This document shows, piece by piece, positions 5,712 to 14,120 of a stretch of 14,322 bases of DNA. The position numbers were made by a program, and so were the translations under genes. The notes beneath the pieces were generated by a model. That model saw only the letters and a program-made list of their open reading frames with translations, had not been told where the DNA came from and did not search any database. This DNA comes from Clostridiaceae bacterium. Its GTDB lineage: Bacteria; Bacillota_A; Clostridia; Clostridiales; Clostridiaceae. The DNA is taken from NCBI GenBank assembly GCA_029256485.1, contig JAQSXU010000089.1, forward strand, positions 1 to 14,322, in the 5' to 3' direction. Every line of letters begins with the position of its first letter. Positions within the stretch are counted from its first letter, which is position 1.

Positions 5712-6590
5712 ATGAAGAAATTGACTATATTCACCCCATCTTTTAATAGGATAAACTACTTACCAAGACTATATGAGAGCCTAAAAAAACAAACATGTAA
5801 GGATTTCATATGGCTAATAGTAGATGACGGATCCACAGATGGAACTCAAGATTTAATTAATAGATATATAAAAATGAATGAAGTGGAAATTGAGTATTAT
5901 TATATTTTAAATTCTGGTAAATATTTGGCACATAATTTAGGAGTGAAATTGAGCAAAACAGAGTTATTTATGTGTGTTGATTCTGATGATTATTTAGATA
6001 AAAATGCAGTTGAGTCTATGTTTATTTTTTGGGATATGAATAGTGATTCAGATATTGTTGGAATAGTTGCTCCGAAACATTTGCAAAATGAACAAATAGC
6101 ATGTAGGTTTTTCCCAAAGACGGGTATAAAAACTAAGTTTTGTTGTCTTAATGATCAATTTAGAATTAAAGGTGAAACAGCCATATTGTTAAAAGTGGAT
6201 ATATTACAGAAACATTATATACCGAAGTTTGAGGGTGAAAAATTTGCAAGTGAAGAAATAATATACAATCAGATTGATGAAAAGTATTGGATTAAAACAT
6301 TGAATCAAAAGGTTTATTATATGGAGTATTTAAAGGATGGAATTACAAAAAATTTATTTAAAACCTGGCTTGAAAATCCAAATTCAACTAAATATTTATT
6401 AAATAGCAGATATAAAACAATATATTCATTGGATAAAAAATCAGTCTATATAAAGCGTATTAAAACCATAATATGGCTAGAGGCATTAGCGTTAAAGTTA
6501 AAAGAAAGCATATTTTTAAATATTTCCAATAAAGTGGTAGCAGTATTATTATTCCCAATAGCTGTATTTGTTGCATATAAAAAGTTTTGA
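5712..6590 (+). CDS. GT2-family glycosyltransferase
   Basis: This 292-residue protein is a GT-A enzyme distinct from the other GT2 in the locus. It has LTIFTPSFNR (4-13), LIVDDGSTDGT (35-45), the acceptor-side SGKYLAHNLGV (68-78) and a full VDSDD (89-93) metal site. FASEEIIYNQ at about 177-186 probably holds the catalytic acidic pair. The last 25 residues are hydrophobic (VVAVLLFPIAVFVAYKKF), giving a likely C-terminal membrane anchor. The ribosome binding site is weak (GAGG at 5700-5703, eight bases before ATG), so it may be translated less well than its neighbours or by coupling. The donor and linkage cannot be inferred. Confidence 0.9.
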   Translation: MKKLTIFTPSFNRINYLPRLYESLKKQTCKDFIWLIVDDGSTDGTQDLINRYIKMNEVEIEYYYILNSGKYLAHNLGVKLSKTELFMCVDSDDYLDKNAVESMFIFWDMNSDSDIVGIVAPKHLQNEQIACRFFPKTGIKTKFCCLNDQFRIKGETAILLKVDILQKHYIPKFEGEKFASEEIIYNQIDEKYWIKTLNQKVYYMEYLKDGITKNLFKTWLENPNSTKYLLNSRYKTIYSLDKKSVYIKRIKTIIWLEALALKLKESIFLNISNKVVAVLLFPIAVFVAYKKF

Positions 6591-6643
6591 AATAGAAAAT
6601 TAATTAAAAAGCAAGATAAATATTAAAAAGGGGGATGATGTTA

Positions 6644-6823
6644 ATGAGAGATATCAAAATTGGGTATGTTGTAAACGGAAATATTGAAGATAAAACTTTG
6701 TGGTCTGGTACAATTTATAACTTGGCACAAATAATTTCTAAAAAATATGTTATAGAAGCATTAAATATTAATACACGTTTAATAGATAAAATATTTAAAT
6801 TGAAGAAAATTATAAAAAAGTAA
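6644..6823 (+). CDS. GT4-family glycosyltransferase, N-terminal part ending at a frameshift site
   Basis: These 59 codons encode the beginning of a GT-B glycosyltransferase: RDIKIGYVVNGNIEDKTLWSG followed by TIYNLAQIISKKY, the acceptor-domain opening in which a W-S-G-T motif follows the first strand. The frame ends at TAA 6821-6823, far short of any known family length, and the rest of the protein continues in the -1 frame. I chose ATG 6644 because it lies nine bases after AAAAAGGGGG (6625-6634); ATGs at 6635 and 6638 touch the ribosome binding site. Alone this peptide cannot be an enzyme. It makes sense only joined to the following part, giving about 375 residues in total. Alternatively the gene is a recent pseudogene. 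Confidence 0.75.
   Translation: MRDIKIGYVVNGNIEDKTLWSGTIYNLAQIISKKYVIEALNINTRLIDKIFKLKKIIKK
6814..6820 (+). other. Candidate -1 frameshift (slippery) heptamer A AAA AAG followed by TAA
   Basis: In the upstream frame the codons read AAA (6815-6817), AAG (6818-6820), TAA (6821-6823), preceded by A at 6814. This is the exact phase of the A AAA AAG heptamer used for programmed -1 frameshifting in dnaX. Slipping back one base continues GTA ATA TTT and stays open to 7770. The stop directly after the heptamer would pause ribosomes. I see no strong stimulatory stem-loop downstream and no strong Shine-Dalgarno-like stimulator about ten bases upstream. Gain of one A in the six-A run, in DNA or RNA, restores the same protein. 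Confidence 0.55.
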
Positions 6824-7770
6824 TATTTAAAAAAAATTCAAATGAAATGGAAATACTTTATTCAAAATTGAAATCTAAAAGGCTAAATAAACTATTACAA
6901 TCTAAAGTATATGATGTTATTTTTGTGCCAGCTAACAGTTATTCGATAGCTTTTCTTAAAACTAATATACCAATTATATATTTAAGTGATGCGACATTTC
7001 ATTTAATGATTAATTATTATTTTTTTGGATTAGATGATAAAAGCATATATAACGGAAATACAGTAGAAAAAAATGCATTAGTAAATGCTAATCAGATAAT
7101 CTATTCAAGTGAGTGGGCTAAGATGGATGCAATTAATTTTTATAACATTAATTCAAAGAAAATTAACGTTTTTCCATTTGGCTCAAACTTAGTGTGTAGA
7201 TTTGAAAAAGAACATGTGCTTAATAAAGAAGTCAACCTATTATTTGTCGGTGTAGATTGGAAGCGTAAAGGCGCAGATATAGCAATTGAATGCATAGACT
7301 ATTTAAATAAACATTCTAAAAGAACTTATAAATTAACTATTATAGGTCTTAGAAGGCCTTCTGATTTTAATGTGGAAAATGTAAATTTTGTTGGATTTTT
7401 AAATAAGAATAACAAAGAAGAATACGATGAACTTATAGATTATTATAAATCTAGTGATATGTTTATATTGCCAACTCAAGCAGAGTGTGCTGGCATTGTA
7501 TTTTCAGAGGCAAGCATGTTTGGACTTCCTATTATAACTTATGATACTGGCGGTATTGCCACCTATGTGATAAATGATATTAATGGATATAGGCTTCCGC
7601 TGCTTTCCGATAGCAAGGAATTTGCTAACTCAGTTGAAAAAATATGCAAAGATAATGAGACCTTTGAAAAATTTTCACAAAATGCAATAAAACAATATGA
7701 GGAAAATTTGAATTGGGATAACTGGTTAAAATCTTTTAGTTCAGTTATAGAAAAAGTTGTTAATATATAA
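6820..7770 (+). CDS. GT4-family glycosyltransferase, main part in the -1 frame
   Basis: This frame supplies 316 residues of a GT-B retaining glycosyltransferase. It is written from 6820, where a -1 shift would enter it; the frame is open from 6799 and its first ATG is at 6847. From that ATG: YDVIFVPANS (22-31), IPIIYLSDATFHLM (41-54), IIYSSEWA (84-91), FPFGSN (109-114), LLFVGVDWKRKG (131-142, donor phosphate-binding R/K) and the E-x7-E motif ECAGIVFSE (213-221), then the TYDTGG loop. These are the full donor domain and part of the acceptor domain. No ribosome binding site precedes 6847, so independent translation is unlikely. Joined with the upstream part the protein is complete, with no missing motif, which argues that the interruption is recent or tolerated by frameshifting. 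Confidence 0.85.
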   Translation, partial: VIFKKNSNEMEILYSKLKSKRLNKLLQSKVYDVIFVPANSYSIAFLKTNIPIIYLSDATFHLMINYYFFGLDDKSIYNGNTVEKNALVNANQIIYSSEWAKMDAINFYNINSKKINVFPFGSNLVCRFEKEHVLNKEVNLLFVGVDWKRKGADIAIECIDYLNKHSKRTYKLTIIGLRRPSDFNVENVNFVGFLNKNNKEEYDELIDYYKSSDMFILPTQAECAGIVFSEASMFGLPIITYDTGGIATYVINDINGYRLPLLSDSKEFANSVEKICKDNETFEKFSQNAIKQYEENLNWDNWLKSFSSVIEKVVNI

Positions 7771-7842
7771 GTGTATATTTAGGTATTAAACCAAATATGT
7801 TTAAAATAATTAGATAATTTTTACAATTGAAAGGAGTCAAGT

Positions 7843-8739
7843 ATGAGAGGAATTATTTTGGCTGGGGGATCAGCTACACGATTATATCCAGTAACTAAAG
7901 CGATGTCAAAACAAATGGTGCCTATATATGATAAACCAATGATTTTTTATCCAATGTCAGTTTTAATGCTTGCAGGAATAAGAGACATTTTAATTATATC
8001 GACTCGAAGGGATATAGTTAATTTTAGAGAGCTTTTTAACGATGGACAGGAATTAGGGTTAAATATTGAATATGGAATTCAAGAAAATCCTAATGGGCTT
8101 GCGGAAGCATTTATTATTGGAGAAGAATTTATTGGTACTGACAATGTAGCAATGGTTCTTGGAGATAATATTTTCTATGGTCAGCGCTTTACAGAACATT
8201 TAAAAAGAGCTGCTGATTTAAAAAATGGAGCATATGTATTTGGATATTATGTTCAAAATCCAAAATCTTTTGGTGTAGTTGAATTTGATGATGATGGTAA
8301 AGTTATTTCTTTGGAGGAAAAACCAGAAAAACCTAAATCTAAATATGCAGTACCAGGTCTTTATTTTTACGATAATTCAGTAGTTAAAAAGACTAAATCA
8401 TTGAAACCTTCACAAAGGGGAGAATTAGAGATAACTGATTTAAATAAAGCTTATATGGAAGAAGGAACGTTGAAAATTGAAGTACTAGGTAGAGGAATGG
8501 CTTGGCTTGATACAGGAACTCATACATCTATGCTTCGAGCATCTAATTTTGTTGAGGCAGTTCAAAATACTCAAGGAACATATATAGCATGTCTTGAGGA
8601 AATCTCTTATAGAAAAGGTTGGATTACTTCCGAACAGGTTATTGAACTTGCTAAGCCATTAATGAAAACAGGATATGGGAAATATTTAGTTGAAATAGTA
8701 GAAGAAATTAAAAGTAAAATTGTAGTAGTAAGTAAATAA
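7843..8739 (+). CDS. rfbA: Glucose-1-phosphate thymidylyltransferase RmlA/RfbA
   Basis: This 298-residue cytoplasmic enzyme makes dTDP-glucose from dTTP and glucose-1-phosphate, the entry step to dTDP-rhamnose and other dTDP-deoxysugars. It has the signature [20 protein letters not shown] (8-27, Ala replacing the common Gly in GGSGTRL), YDKPMIFYP (29-37), LGDNIFYG (106-113, metal and nucleotide site), the EEKPEKPKS block and GLYFYDN, and [11 protein letters not shown]. Length is slightly above the usual 285-295 of the short form. AAAGGAG (7830-7836) is six bases before ATG. The rmlB, rmlC and rmlD genes are not in the window, so the pathway must be completed elsewhere or the product is used differently. 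Its composition is a little less AT-extreme than the neighbouring membrane protein genes. Confidence 0.96.
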
Positions 8740-9925: not shown

Positions 9926-11344
9926 TTGAATAATAAAGCTGTTAATTTTTTAAAGAATTTTTCATATACTCTTTCATCAAATTTAATATCTGTGGTTATA
10001 TCAACTATCGTAATTTTAATAGTACCGAAGATTATAGGAGTAGAAGGGTATGGTTATTGGCAGCTATATTTGTTTTATTCTTCTTATGTTGGATTATTAC
10101 ATTTTGGATGGAATGATGGAATATACCTAAGGTATGGTGGTAAACATTATGAAGAGTTAGATAAAAGGTTGTTTTTCTCCCAATTTTGGATGCTGGCAAT
10201 ATTGCAATTAATATTAGTTATATTCATCATGGGTATGTCAACTATTTTTATAAATGATCCTAATCGATTATTCATATTCAAGATGCTAGCATTAAGTTTG
10301 CTAATAGTAAACTTAAATTGTATGTTAGTATATATTTTACAAAGTACAAATAGGATAAAAGAATATGCTCAAATAACAATGATGGAGAAAGTGTTTTATA
10401 CTTTATTGATTATCTTGCTCCTAATATTAAATATAAGAGAATATACAATAATGATTATGGCTGATCTAATGGGAAAATTAATTTCTTTTCTATATTCAAT
10501 GTATTGTTGTAAAGATATTGTGTTTAGGAAAGTATCATCTTTCTATTTAAATATAAAGGAAGCAATAAAAAGTATCAATGCTGGTATAAAATTGATGTTT
10601 GCTAACATAGCAAGTTCGTTGATAATAGGAATTGTAAGATTTGGTATTGAACGAATATGGGATGTTTCCACATTTGGCAAAGTATCATTGACTTTGAGTA
10701 TTTCAAATTTGATGATGATATTTATAAATGCAATGGGGATAATAATATTTCCTCTACTTAGAAGAATAGAAACTCAAAAATTACCGAGTATCTATATAAC
10801 AATAAGAACACTTTTAATGATGTTATTAATAGGCACACTTATAGTATATTATCCATTGAAATTTATTTTGTCAGCGTGGTTGCCACAGTATGCTGAAAGT
10901 TTAATTTATATGGCATTAGTTTTTCCTATATGTATTTATGAAGGGAAAATATCATTGTTAATTTATACATTTTTAAAATCACTTAGAAAAGAAAAATTTA
11001 TATTGCTCATAAATATAATATCTGTAATTCTTAGTTTAATAACAACATTTATATTTGCATTTGTGCTTAAAAATTTATCATTATCAATAGCAGCTATAGT
11101 TTTTCTGTTGGCCTTTAGATGTACTTTAGCAGAAATGTTTTTATCAAAGATACTTAATATCTCATTATATAAGGATAGTACTTTAGAAATCCTAATAACG
11201 TTGGTGTTTATATTGACAGGATGGTTTGTTGTTTCATGGCTTGGAATAATAATATATTTATTAGCTTACATCCTATATTTGTTTATTAAAAGAAAAGATA
11301 TTATCACCATGATAAAAAGAATAAAAAATTTAGCAAAAGAATAA
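9926..11344 (+). CDS. Wzx-type flippase of the polysaccharide transporter (PST) family
   Basis: This protein of 472 residues has about 12-14 hydrophobic helices, the expected size and topology for a lipid-linked oligosaccharide flippase in the MOP superfamily. The N-terminus NFLKNFSYTLSSNLISVVIS, PKIIGVEGYGYWQLY and the following GWNDGIYLRYGG are typical of Firmicutes capsule flippases. It should carry the undecaprenyl-linked unit across the membrane for Wzy. The start is TTG at 9926, with GAGGAG (9914-9919) six bases upstream; no ATG lies in a sensible position. The gene is very AT-rich, and the rare start may lower expression. Confidence 0.9.
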   Translation: MNNKAVNFLKNFSYTLSSNLISVVISTIVILIVPKIIGVEGYGYWQLYLFYSSYVGLLHFGWNDGIYLRYGGKHYEELDKRLFFSQFWMLAILQLILVIFIMGMSTIFINDPNRLFIFKMLALSLLIVNLNCMLVYILQSTNRIKEYAQITMMEKVFYTLLIILLLILNIREYTIMIMADLMGKLISFLYSMYCCKDIVFRKVSSFYLNIKEAIKSINAGIKLMFANIASSLIIGIVRFGIERIWDVSTFGKVSLTLSISNLMMIFINAMGIIIFPLLRRIETQKLPSIYITIRTLLMMLLIGTLIVYYPLKFILSAWLPQYAESLIYMALVFPICIYEGKISLLIYTFLKSLRKEKFILLINIISVILSLITTFIFAFVLKNLSLSIAAIVFLLAFRCTLAEMFLSKILNISLYKDSTLEILITLVFILTGWFVVSWLGIIIYLLAYILYLFIKRKDIITMIKRIKNLAKE

Positions 11345-12178: not shown

Positions 12179-12232
12179 ATGAATAGTTTTATATTAAATA
12201 GTACAACTAAATTATATAAGGGGAGAATATAA
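12179..12232 (+). other. Possible 17-codon leader frame overlapping the kinase start
   Basis: In the 93-base gap before the kinase, ATG 12179 opens a 17-codon frame (MNSFILNSTTKLYKGRI) whose TAA at 12230-12232 shares an A with the kinase ATG in the sequence TAATG. AAAGGTG precedes it but nearly touches the ATG. Such an overlap could allow coupled translation, yet the kinase has its own AAGGGGAG (12218-12225) site. It may be chance; the peptide resembles nothing I know. Confidence 0.2.
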
Positions 12233-12891
12233 TGTTTATATTTGAAGATAAACCGAGATCAATAGATTCAGAAGCATATAGAACATTAAGAACTAATATA
12301 CAGTACTTGGCCATTAATAAAGAAATTAAAAGTATTTTAGTTACAAGTGCGTGCCCTAAAGAAGGAAAGTCAACAGTATCAGGAAATTTAGCTTTATCGT
12401 TTGCACAGGATGGGAAAAAGGTAATAATTATTGATTGTGATTTAAGACAACCTTCTATTCATACAAAATTTAAAATATCAAATTTATGTGGTATTACAGA
12501 AGTGTTGATAGGAAGAGAAACACTAGATACAGCAATTCAAAATTATAAATTAAATCTTGATATATTGACAAGCGGAAAGTGTCCACCTAACCCATCTGAA
12601 ATGATTAATTCGACAGTAATGAGTAATTTGTTAGAAGAACTTAAGAATAAATATGATATGTTAATAATAGACAGTCCGCCATTGGAAGTGGTTAGCGATG
12701 GTCAAATTTTATCTACAAAAGTGGATGGAACTATTATAGTTTTAAAATCAGAAAAAAGTAAAATATCATCAGTTAAGGAATCAAAAAATCTTTTAAATAG
12801 AGTTGGCGCAAATATAATTGGCTTAGTGATAAATGAAGTGAAGAATAGGAAGAAAAAATATTCATACTATTATGGAAGAGAAAAAAAGTAA
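12232..12891 (+). CDS. CpsD/CapB-type bacterial tyrosine kinase (BY-kinase)
   Basis: This cytoplasmic P-loop ATPase of 219 residues autophosphorylates on tyrosines and, with the adjacent adaptor, regulates polymerisation and export. It shows EAYRTLRTNI (14-23, the helix of the oligomer interface), Walker A SACPKEGKST (39-48), Walker A' VIIIDCDLRQP (64-74), Walker B LIIDSPP (144-150) and a C-terminal tyrosine cluster YSYYYG (210-215), the phosphorylation tail. Length is normal. AAGGGGAG lies six bases before ATG. The cognate PHP-type phosphatase (CpsB/YwqE) that usually accompanies it is not in the window. The adaptor and kinase sit near the 3' end of the cluster here rather than near the start. 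Confidence 0.94.
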   Translation: MFIFEDKPRSIDSEAYRTLRTNIQYLAINKEIKSILVTSACPKEGKSTVSGNLALSFAQDGKKVIIIDCDLRQPSIHTKFKISNLCGITEVLIGRETLDTAIQNYKLNLDILTSGKCPPNPSEMINSTVMSNLLEELKNKYDMLIIDSPPLEVVSDGQILSTKVDGTIIVLKSEKSKISSVKESKNLLNRVGANIIGLVINEVKNRKKKYSYYYGREKK

Positions 12892-12908: not shown

Positions 12909-14120
12909 ATGGAATATTATCAAAAAGTAATAATTGATATTTTAAATGCATCCGTAAATAATAAAAATATTGTATTTAACGAAGAAAATGGTATCGACTG
13001 GAATGAAGTTATAAGGGAAGCTAAACAACATAAAATTAGTTCGTTAATATATTCAGCAGTAGATAAAGATAGCTTAAAATACATTGATGATAATATACTA
13101 GCTGAATGGAAAAAGGATATTTTTAAGGATAATGTAACTCAAATAAGACATATAAATAACATTTCACAATTAGTTAATAATTTAAATAAACAAGGGATAG
13201 AAATAATATTGTTAAAGGGATTAGTTTTAAGGGAGCTATATCCAAGACCTGAATATAGAACAATGAGTGATGCAGATATATTGGTCAAGTCAAAAGACTA
13301 TTTAGTTCTTGAAGATCACTTAATAAAAAATGGCTACGAATGTGATAAAGAAAATCATCCAGTTCATAAATGCTTTATGTGTTCTGATCACTCACTTATT
13401 GAAGTCCATTGGAAACTTATAAATGATAGTTATTTTAATGGATATACAGAAAAATTTGAAAATGATGTTTGGAAAAAATCAATTGAATTTAATATTTCCG
13501 GAGCTAAATGTAAAACATTATGTGATGAAGACTTACTTATTCATATGTGCCTTCATATGGCTGTACATGCTAAATATAGAGGATTTGGATTAAGGCAATT
13601 ATATGACGTGGCAATATTTGTTAAAAATAAAAATATAGATTGGGTAAGTTTTTGTAGTAGAATATCTGTTTACGGAATATCAAAATTTACAAAAGGAATA
13701 TTTGAAATATTAAATCAAATATTTGATTTAAATATCCCGAAAGATATTTTAAAAAATCAATATATAAGTCAGCAAGAAATACAATTATTATTAAATAATA
13801 TTTTAGCATCTGGAGTACATGGGCAGAAAGAGGAAATAGTTGGATTCAATATTTCATATAAGGATAGAAGTGATGAGTCATATTCAAAGTATAATGTAAA
13901 AAGATTATTTAAATTTATTTTTCCAACTAGAGCAGAATTAAGTTATAGATATGAATATGCAAAAGAAAATGTTTTATTATTGCCTATAGCTTGGATACAT
14001 CATGCTATAAGAGGAGTGTTTATAAGAAAATATGGATTTGTTAAAATGATTAAATATTATTTGGCCACATTGGATGTTATTAATAGAAGGAAAGAAATAA
14101 TTAAAATTTTTGAATTATAA
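12909..14120 (+). CDS. Nucleotidyltransferase family protein (NTP_transf_5-like) of unknown role
   Basis: This soluble-looking protein of 403 residues resembles the uncharacterised nucleotidyltransferase-fold family often called NTP_transf_5. The key region is LLKGLVLRELYPRPEYRTMS followed by DADILV (101-126), where K103-G104 and the Asp pair D121/D123 match the metal-binding part of the pol-beta nucleotidyltransferase fold. SLIEVHWKL (162-170) and the histidine-rich HMCLHMAVH are further family features, and the remainder is largely helical. Relatives occur in capsule clusters and peptide natural-product clusters, but I know of no established substrate. It starts 17 bases after the kinase with AAGGGTGG (12897-12904) before ATG, so it is almost certainly co-transcribed. 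It might modify a sugar, lipid or the kinase system; this is only inference. Confidence 0.8.
   Translation: MEYYQKVIIDILNASVNNKNIVFNEENGIDWNEVIREAKQHKISSLIYSAVDKDSLKYIDDNILAEWKKDIFKDNVTQIRHINNISQLVNNLNKQGIEIILLKGLVLRELYPRPEYRTMSDADILVKSKDYLVLEDHLIKNGYECDKENHPVHKCFMCSDHSLIEVHWKLINDSYFNGYTEKFENDVWKKSIEFNISGAKCKTLCDEDLLIHMCLHMAVHAKYRGFGLRQLYDVAIFVKNKNIDWVSFCSRISVYGISKFTKGIFEILNQIFDLNIPKDILKNQYISQQEIQLLLNNILASGVHGQKEEIVGFNISYKDRSDESYSKYNVKRLFKFIFPTRAELSYRYEYAKENVLLLPIAWIHHAIRGVFIRKYGFVKMIKYYLATLDVINRRKEIIKIFEL

What the first reader, a model, noticed from the sequence alone, without database searches (positions are those of the whole stretch)
6800..6850. GT4 gene split exactly at an in-phase A AAA AAG slippery heptamer followed by a stop
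The upstream frame reads AAA AAG TAA (6815-6823) preceded by A, the same heptamer and phase used in dnaX -1 frameshifting. Only the -1 frame gives a complete GT4 protein, and no ribosome site precedes the first downstream ATG (6847). A frame break at a random point would be unlikely to fall on this motif in the right phase, although A-runs are common here. It could be programmed frameshifting, transcriptional slippage on the A-run, or an on/off switch by A-run length changing the polysaccharide structure. A simple loss-of-function deletion or a sequencing error in the homopolymer are the dull alternatives.
Basis: partly seen in the sequence, partly recalled or inferred. Interest (0 to 1): 0.75.

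Follow-up and report, generated by a model that had tools for sequence, protein, structure and literature searches.

The report
Frame-broken clostridial sugar-transferase gene
A sugar-transferase gene in a Clostridium's surface-polysaccharide cluster is really cut in two by a change of reading frame at or beside a short run of A's; this looks like an inherited gene break that may leak a little, and a deliberate recoding signal is possible but unproven.

Summary
A 62-codon ORF (6635-6823) ends A AAA AAG TAA, and the rest of a GT4 glycosyltransferase (307 codons from ATG 6847) lies in the -1 frame without a ribosome-binding site. The host is a Clostridium near C. beijerinckii/chromiireducens. 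Assembly error is unlikely: a second record, two residues different, has the same 307-aa ORF from the same ATG, and the exact upstream piece is listed on a 6.28-Mb contig. The nearest intact relatives shown are 62-64% identical. Programmed frameshifting lacks its usual supports: no SD-like stimulator, a downstream fold no better than shuffles, and Lys-Gln at the heptamer columns in the four nearest intact relatives. A more distant relative on a Lactiplantibacillus plasmid is also split at an A-run, elsewhere and in the other direction. Against my reading, in-phase A_AAA_AAG is rare (once in 3808 codons of 13 intact ORFs), and a simple deletion model puts it at a break in 0.02-0.18% of cases. 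Best reading: an inherited frameshift in an acquired glycosyltransferase, largely inactive, perhaps leaking a little full-length protein. Selected frameshifting keeps about one chance in six. The other strains' DNA and the host's lysine tRNAs could not be seen.

The parts
6635..6823 (+). Piece 1: N-terminal part of a GT4 glycosyltransferase, 62 codons (starts possible at 6635, 6638, 6644), ends AAA AAG TAA
   Evidence: 46-52% identical to residues 2-57 of the four nearest intact homologs; carries the W-S-G-T motif
6625..6634 (+). Ribosome-binding site of piece 1 (AAAAAGGGGG)
   Evidence: predicted anti-SD pairing -10.7 to -13.2 kcal/mol
6799..6823 (+). Overlap of the two open frames; the frame change must lie here
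   Evidence: -1 frame stop at 6796-6798, frame-0 stop at 6821-6823
6814..6820 (+). In-phase heptamer A AAA AAG
6821..6823 (+). Frame-0 stop TAA directly after the heptamer
6829..6836 (+). A8 run, downstream of the frame-0 stop, so slippage there could not rescue the upstream frame
6847..7770 (+). Piece 2: rest of the GT4 glycosyltransferase in the -1 frame, 307 codons from the first ATG, no ribosome-binding site
   Evidence: (PF00534, E 8.2e-24)

Best explanation
A GT4 glycosyltransferase gene of a clostridial surface-polysaccharide cluster has an inherited frameshift in its 5' part, most simply at the A-run, and the broken allele is shared by more than one sequenced strain. Most ribosomes stop at TAA 6821 and release a 62-residue stub. 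The remaining 307-codon frame lacks a ribosome site and the first two strands of the N-terminal Rossmann domain, so the enzyme is largely absent. Because the break leaves an in-phase A AAA AAG, a small unselected -1 frameshift leak of full-length enzyme is plausible. Shown here: the break, the frames, the missing ribosome site, similar ORF limits in other records, intact relatives at 62-64%. Inferred: that it arose as an indel in the A-run, the loss of activity, and the leak.
For: Of 119 listed homologs (P0002-P0120, from 627 hits of which 120 are shown), 104 match both pieces (E up to 1) within one protein, so the uninterrupted frame is the family norm. The nearest intact ones (Neobacillus and unnamed records, 62-64% identical) have Lys-Gln at the heptamer columns. 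P0001, a different strain (2 of 307 residues differ), has the same 307-aa ORF from the same ATG. P0122 equals residues 2-62 of piece 1 and ends at the same place. No SD-like stimulator of the listed kinds in the 30 nt upstream. Downstream RNA fold z = +0.10, with 106 of 200 shuffles as stable, and 82-98% of same-sized intact-ORF stretches at least as stable. A 48%-identical homolog on an L. plantarum plasmid is also split into two ORFs, at a run of nine A in another part of the gene and with the second part in the other direction, so breaks at A-runs recur in the family without this heptamer and phase. In the model of intact homolog P0004, piece 1 covers strands 3-8 and 34-39, helix 17-30 and most of helix 45-60. 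In the GeneTack survey, recoding-candidate clusters held 4302 of 206,991 predicted frame-broken genes, and transposase genes were the largest group with known programmed frameshifts (PMC3711429, Results part 1 of 3 read).
Against: The exact heptamer in phase at the break is unlikely under simple break models (0.02-0.18%) and rare in intact ORFs (1 in 3808 codons). Piece 2 is uninterrupted and keeps its GT4 domain. The other strain's flanking DUF554 protein, apparently on the same 17,892-base contig, differs at 7 of 193 residues while piece 2 differs at 2 of 307; a decaying gene would not be expected to be the better conserved, unless the cluster was exchanged recently. I saw no break in the other 13 ORFs of the cluster (not compared one by one with homologs), so the cluster does not look generally decayed. 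The L. plantarum split at nine A could equally be read as slippage-prone expression in this family.
Confidence: 0.65

Rival explanations
1. Selected -1 ribosomal frameshifting: ribosomes slip at A AAA AAG so that a minority make the full-length glycosyltransferase, setting how often one sugar is added to the polymer.
For: Heptamer in the right phase, stop directly after it, -1 frame completing a conserved enzyme in ungapped register. A_AAA_AAG is among the most shift-prone motifs in E. coli (with stimulators, PMC4066793; PMC5009743 passages). Break state apparently shared between strains with piece 2 nearly unchanged. A sugar-transferase precedent is cited for this heptamer (H. pylori alpha-1,2-fucosyltransferase, reference 58 of PMC3711429).
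Against: No upstream SD-like element and no downstream structure found. Without stimulators, the shift-prone motifs in E. coli reached only 2.1-10 times the no-motif background, which averaged 0.055%. Lys-Gln stands at this place in the 4 nearest intact relatives. Host lysine-tRNA set unknown; a second lysine tRNA may weaken slipping.
Confidence: 0.17
2. On/off phase variation by changes in the length of the A-run.
For: The break lies at or beside an A-run in a surface-polysaccharide gene, a usual place for such switches (recalled). A distant homolog is also split at an A-run.
Against: A6 is short for high-rate replication slippage (recalled). Eight A-runs of 7-8 lie in the intact ORFs of the window. 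No intact 'on' close copy appears among the 120 hits shown.
Confidence: 0.08
3. Transcriptional slippage on the A-run yields a share of mRNAs in which the frames join.
For: In Clostridium thermocellum IS1447, a run of nine A after a stem-loop, of which seven suffice, gave about 16% slippage in each direction (PMC6211511, abstract, part 1 of 7 and passages). The split L. plantarum homolog has nine A at its break.
Against: Only six A here; selection against slippage becomes visible at nine in a large proportion of genomes (PMC1088944, passages). I found no stable stem-loop downstream and did not fold the stretch upstream.
Confidence: 0.05
4. Two-part enzyme: piece 2 is made by re-initiation after TAA 6821 and pairs with piece 1.
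For: The stop and ATG 6847 are only about 24 nt apart; the same cluster holds a PssD/PssE-like pair, known as a two-part enzyme (recalled).
Against: No ribosome site at 6847 (-0.8 kcal/mol); the cut lies near the end of a predicted helix of the N-terminal domain; 104 of 119 listed homologs hold both parts in one chain.
Confidence: 0.03
5. Assembly or read error in the homopolymer.
For: Homopolymers are the usual place for such errors (recalled).
Against: A second record with 2 residue differences has the same ORF limits, and the identical piece 1 is listed on a 6.28-Mb contig. Their DNA was not seen.
Confidence: 0.02

Closest known systems
dnaX-type and IS3-family -1 programmed ribosomal frameshifting at A_AAA_AAG
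   Same: Same heptamer, phase and direction; stop in frame 0 near the site; -1 frame continues a protein
   Different: No SD-like stimulator or downstream structure found; Lys-Gln at the place in the four nearest intact relatives; no product shown
H. pylori alpha-1,2-fucosyltransferase gene (futC), cited for A_AAA_AAG frameshifting (Wang et al. 1999, known here only as a citation in PMC3711429; PMC2752801 passages say futC could be influenced by translational frameshift)
   Same: A surface-sugar transferase whose full product may need a -1 shift at this heptamer
   Different: Different enzyme family (recalled); futC also has a poly-C tract and an imperfect TAA repeat, not seen at this break
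Split GT4 homolog on Lactiplantibacillus plantarum plasmid NZ_CP128482.1
   Same: 48%-identical GT4 in a polysaccharide cluster, cut into two overlapping ORFs at an A-run
   Different: Run of nine A between the two domains (P0004 residues about 185-198), second ORF in the +1 frame, not an A_AAA_AAG site
Frameshift pseudogene clusters of the GeneTack survey (PMC3711429)
   Same: Broken frame limited to close strains as far as seen, intact homologs elsewhere, no ribosome site for the second ORF
   Different: No further lesion seen; the heptamer sits at the break
IS1447 transcriptional slippage in Clostridium thermocellum (PMC6211511)
   Same: A-run in a clostridial gene joins two frames
   Different: Nine A (seven needed) after a stem-loop, against six A here
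GT4 retaining glycosyltransferases of GT-B fold (BshA, MshA, PglA, WaaG, PimA)
   Same: Pfam PF00534 in piece 2; the model of intact homolog P0004 matches these structures (TM by query length 0.45-0.75 in the 50 rows shown)
   Different: Only 13-18% identical in those rows; substrate unknown; here split into two frames

Membership tests
Programmed -1 ribosomal frameshifting | X_XXY_YYZ heptamer in the 0-frame phase at the frame change | tested here: met
   A AAA AAG 6814-6820 inside the overlap
Programmed -1 ribosomal frameshifting | -1 frame continues the same protein | tested here: met
   ungapped register to P0002-P0005
Programmed -1 ribosomal frameshifting | SD-like element upstream or structure downstream | tested here: not met
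   no listed SD motif in 30 nt; z +0.10. Distant stimulators not tested
Programmed -1 ribosomal frameshifting | site conserved in several diverged relatives | tested here: not met
   the 4 nearest intact relatives carry Lys-Gln at the place; 104 of 119 listed homologs match both pieces in one chain
Programmed -1 ribosomal frameshifting | single lysine tRNA reading AAA and AAG | not testable with these tools
   no genome held
Programmed -1 ribosomal frameshifting | trans-frame product shown | not testable with these tools
   needs proteomics or a reporter
Transcriptional slippage | A/T run of about nine, or seven after a stem-loop | tested here: not met
   six A; lengths from PMC1088944 and PMC6211511
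Homopolymer phase variation | both run lengths present in the population or related strains | tested here: inconclusive
   no intact close copy among 120 shown hits; only one close cluster, DNA not seen
Frameshift pseudogene | family norm is one uninterrupted frame; second ORF lacks its own start signal | tested here: met
Frameshift pseudogene | relaxed selection or further lesions in the remaining frame | tested here: inconclusive
   no further lesion; dN/dS not computable without the other strains' DNA
GT4 glycosyltransferase | Glycos_transf_1 domain over its cut-off | tested here: met
   piece 2, 84.5 bits against 26.4

The most novel reading that the evidence does not exclude
A clostridial surface-polysaccharide glycosyltransferase whose only full-length product comes from stimulator-free -1 frameshifting at A AAA AAG, kept across strains because a low dose of the enzyme sets how often a side sugar is added.
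Probability: 0.16. Interest if true: 0.6.

Novelty: new member of a known kind. Interest (0 to 1): 0.28.

Why it matters
If the shift is used, it would be a case of recoding in a non-mobile surface-polysaccharide gene without evident stimulators, and a natural way to dose a glycosyltransferase. If not, it is a clean example of a frame break at an A-run that carries a slippery heptamer, which warns against reading such motifs as programmed signals in AT-rich genomes.

Tried and rejected
Localising the break inside 6799-6823 by comparing both frames with four homologs failed (scores overlap). Relatives by DNA: genome contigs gave one weak Prevotella locus at 27%, viral contigs none, plasmids no near match and 70 records with GT4 proteins below 60% identity (20 listed, of which only the best, split one was opened). 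Promoter scan of 6500-8000 gave no more promoter-like sites than shuffles, 10 against 11.9. Tandem repeats: none of 12 rows covers the break. Six of the 119 listed homologs are under 350 aa; whether they are cut by contig ends or broken was not examined. Literature: ten searches, in an open-licence library only. Clostridium + programmed ribosomal frameshift + slippery sequence gave 1 paper, a review; glycosyltransferase + programmed ribosomal frameshifting + bacteria + polysaccharide gave 0; Clostridium + lysine tRNA + anticodon + frameshift gave 2, with nothing found on the host's lysine tRNAs in what I read; exopolysaccharide + Clostridium beijerinckii + glycosyltransferase + frameshift gave 3, none opened. 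Searches listed further papers by title and abstract start only. Opened: PMC3711429, PMC4066793, PMC1088944, PMC5009743, PMC6211511, PMC2752801, each in part. In these listings and passages I met no report of this case.

Full report
What is there. The window is a polysaccharide gene cluster on the + strand: a DUF554 flank, an initiating sugar transferase, PssD- and PssE-like proteins, a Wzy-like protein, several glycosyltransferases, rmlA, an acyltransferase, a Wzx-like protein, a chain-length protein, a tyrosine autokinase and a nucleotidyltransferase-like protein. The DUF554 flank is 82-86% identical to listed proteins named from Clostridium (C. beijerinckii, C. chromiireducens, C. gelidum and others) and 96% to two unnamed records (best 120 of 7571 hits shown), so the host is a Clostridium of that group; no genome is held for it.

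The break. Piece 1 starts at one of three ATGs (6635, 6638, 6644) behind a strong ribosome site and ends AAA AAG TAA at 6823; the heptamer A AAA AAG is at 6814-6820. The -1 frame is open from 6799 to 7770. Its first ATG is 6847, with predicted anti-SD pairing of only -0.8 kcal/mol, against -5.7 to -13.0 for 13 intact ORFs. The four nearest intact homologs match piece 1 to their residue 57 and the open -1 frame from their residue 51, both ungapped there. The change can therefore lie anywhere in the 25-nt overlap; a BLOSUM comparison of the two frames there did not decide (11-15 against 12-16).

Is it real and shared? The protein search returned 627 hits, 120 shown. The best, P0001, is a Logan record: 307 aa, 305 of 307 identical, starting at the same methionine. 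The next are intact 376-380-aa proteins at 62-64%. A search with piece 1 alone (which by its length limits cannot return full-length proteins) gave one protein, P0122: 61 aa, 100% identical, ending at the same residue, on a 6,282,479-base contig with source '-'. The tool writes '-' for proteins that the window itself encodes, so I cannot say whether that contig is from another strain. I saw no DNA for either record; the shared break is inferred from ORF limits, and a different lesion nearby would look alike. P0124, a DUF554 protein with the same longest contig of 17,892 bases, differs from the window at 7 of 193 residues, while piece 2 differs at 2 of 307. That argues that P0001 is a different strain; that both lie on one contig is inferred from the equal contig length. 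Either the cluster was exchanged recently or piece 2 is well conserved; I cannot separate these.

A second broken homolog. In the plasmid collection the best match, 48% identical, lies on a Lactiplantibacillus plantarum plasmid and is annotated as two overlapping GT4 genes. Read apart, its parts (205 and 180 codons) match P0004 at residues 1-185 and 198-370. Its frame change lies at a run of nine A, and its second part is in the +1 frame. So a member of this family has been split at an A-run at another place and in another direction. That fits ordinary indels at A-runs; nine A would also fit transcriptional slippage there. Only this one of the 70 matching plasmid records was opened.

Is the motif more than chance? 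In 13 intact ORFs (3808 codons), AAAAAAG occurs three times and in phase once. That one is the natural end of the autokinase gene (12882-12891), again followed by TAA. AAAAAAGTAA occurs four times in the window against 0.41 expected, so the word is locally common. In a model of single-base losses at 10,249 positions (gene ends left out), an in-phase A_AAA_AAG lay in the overlap in 0.02-0.18% of cases, depending on how strongly long runs are favoured, and in none directly before the stop. Any X_XXY_YYZ heptamer with Y = A or T lay there in 24-71%. The model rests on eight intact-ORF A-runs of seven or more, none followed by G in the needed phase, so its small figures are rough. Motif and break are also not independent, since indels favour A-runs (established knowledge). 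Weighed against the survey's 4302 genes in recoding-candidate clusters among 206,991 predicted frame-broken genes, with transposase genes the largest group with known programmed frameshifts (PMC3711429, Results part 1 of 3 read), I put selected frameshifting at about one in six; that weighing is my judgement.

Are there stimulators? None of the SD-like motifs listed in PMC4066793 (passages) lies in the 30 nt upstream; the best anti-SD pairing there is -2.5 kcal/mol. RNA from 6814 to 6900 folds no better than shuffles (z +0.10, 106 of 200 as stable). From 6825, stretches of 40, 60, 80 and 120 nt are weaker than most intact-ORF stretches: 87.5, 82.5, 98.0 and 96.4% of these are at least as stable. 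In E. coli, the shift-prone motifs without stimulators gave 2.1-10 times a no-motif background averaging 0.055% (PMC4066793, section read). A leak of that order is what I would expect if the host has one lysine tRNA; PMC5009743 (passages) says approximately half of known bacteria do. The host's set is unknown.

What is lost. The model of intact homolog P0004 (mean pLDDT 93.1) places strands 3-8 and 34-39, helix 17-30 and most of helix 45-60 in the part matched by piece 1, so piece 2 alone lacks the start of the N-terminal Rossmann domain. In an alignment of 42 of the 119 homologs, picked by hand without the short ones, Ser19 and Gly20 are invariant and Trp18 at least 90%. In all 119, WSG within the first 70 residues occurs in 107 (WSG followed by T or S in 79). 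The model's closest solved folds include GT4 enzymes: BshA (TM by query 0.65-0.71), MshA (0.45-0.75), PglA, WaaG and PimA, at 13-18% identity in the 50 rows shown. That piece 2 alone is inactive is inference.

Verdict. A real, probably inherited frame break, most likely a mutated glycosyltransferase gene with at most a basal leak. Programmed frameshifting fails two tested features (stimulators, conservation of the site) and passes two (heptamer in phase, -1 frame completing the protein), with the decisive ones untested. Transcriptional slippage and phase variation are less likely because the run is six A long.

Noticed in passing
12882-12891: The autokinase gene (12232-12891) also ends A AAA AAG TAA, and its -1 frame there runs straight into the next gene (12909-14120), which has its own ribosome site (predicted pairing -7.6 kcal/mol); a second place in the window where this heptamer could be tested.
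   Followed up: partly
window, 6814, 9495 (-), 12752, 12882: The decamer AAAAAAGTAA occurs four times, where 0.41 is expected from shuffles.
   Followed up: no
L003:1219-2368: A GT4 homolog on L. plantarum plasmid NZ_CP128482.1 is split into two overlapping ORFs at a run of nine A, second part in the +1 frame.
   Followed up: partly
7843-8739: rmlA is present, and no rmlB, rmlC or rmlD was recognised among the window's ORFs that I scanned.
   Followed up: no
1-582 against 6847-7770: The flanking DUF554 protein differs more from the second strain (7 of 193) than the broken glycosyltransferase piece (2 of 307), as if the cluster had been exchanged recently.
   Followed up: partly
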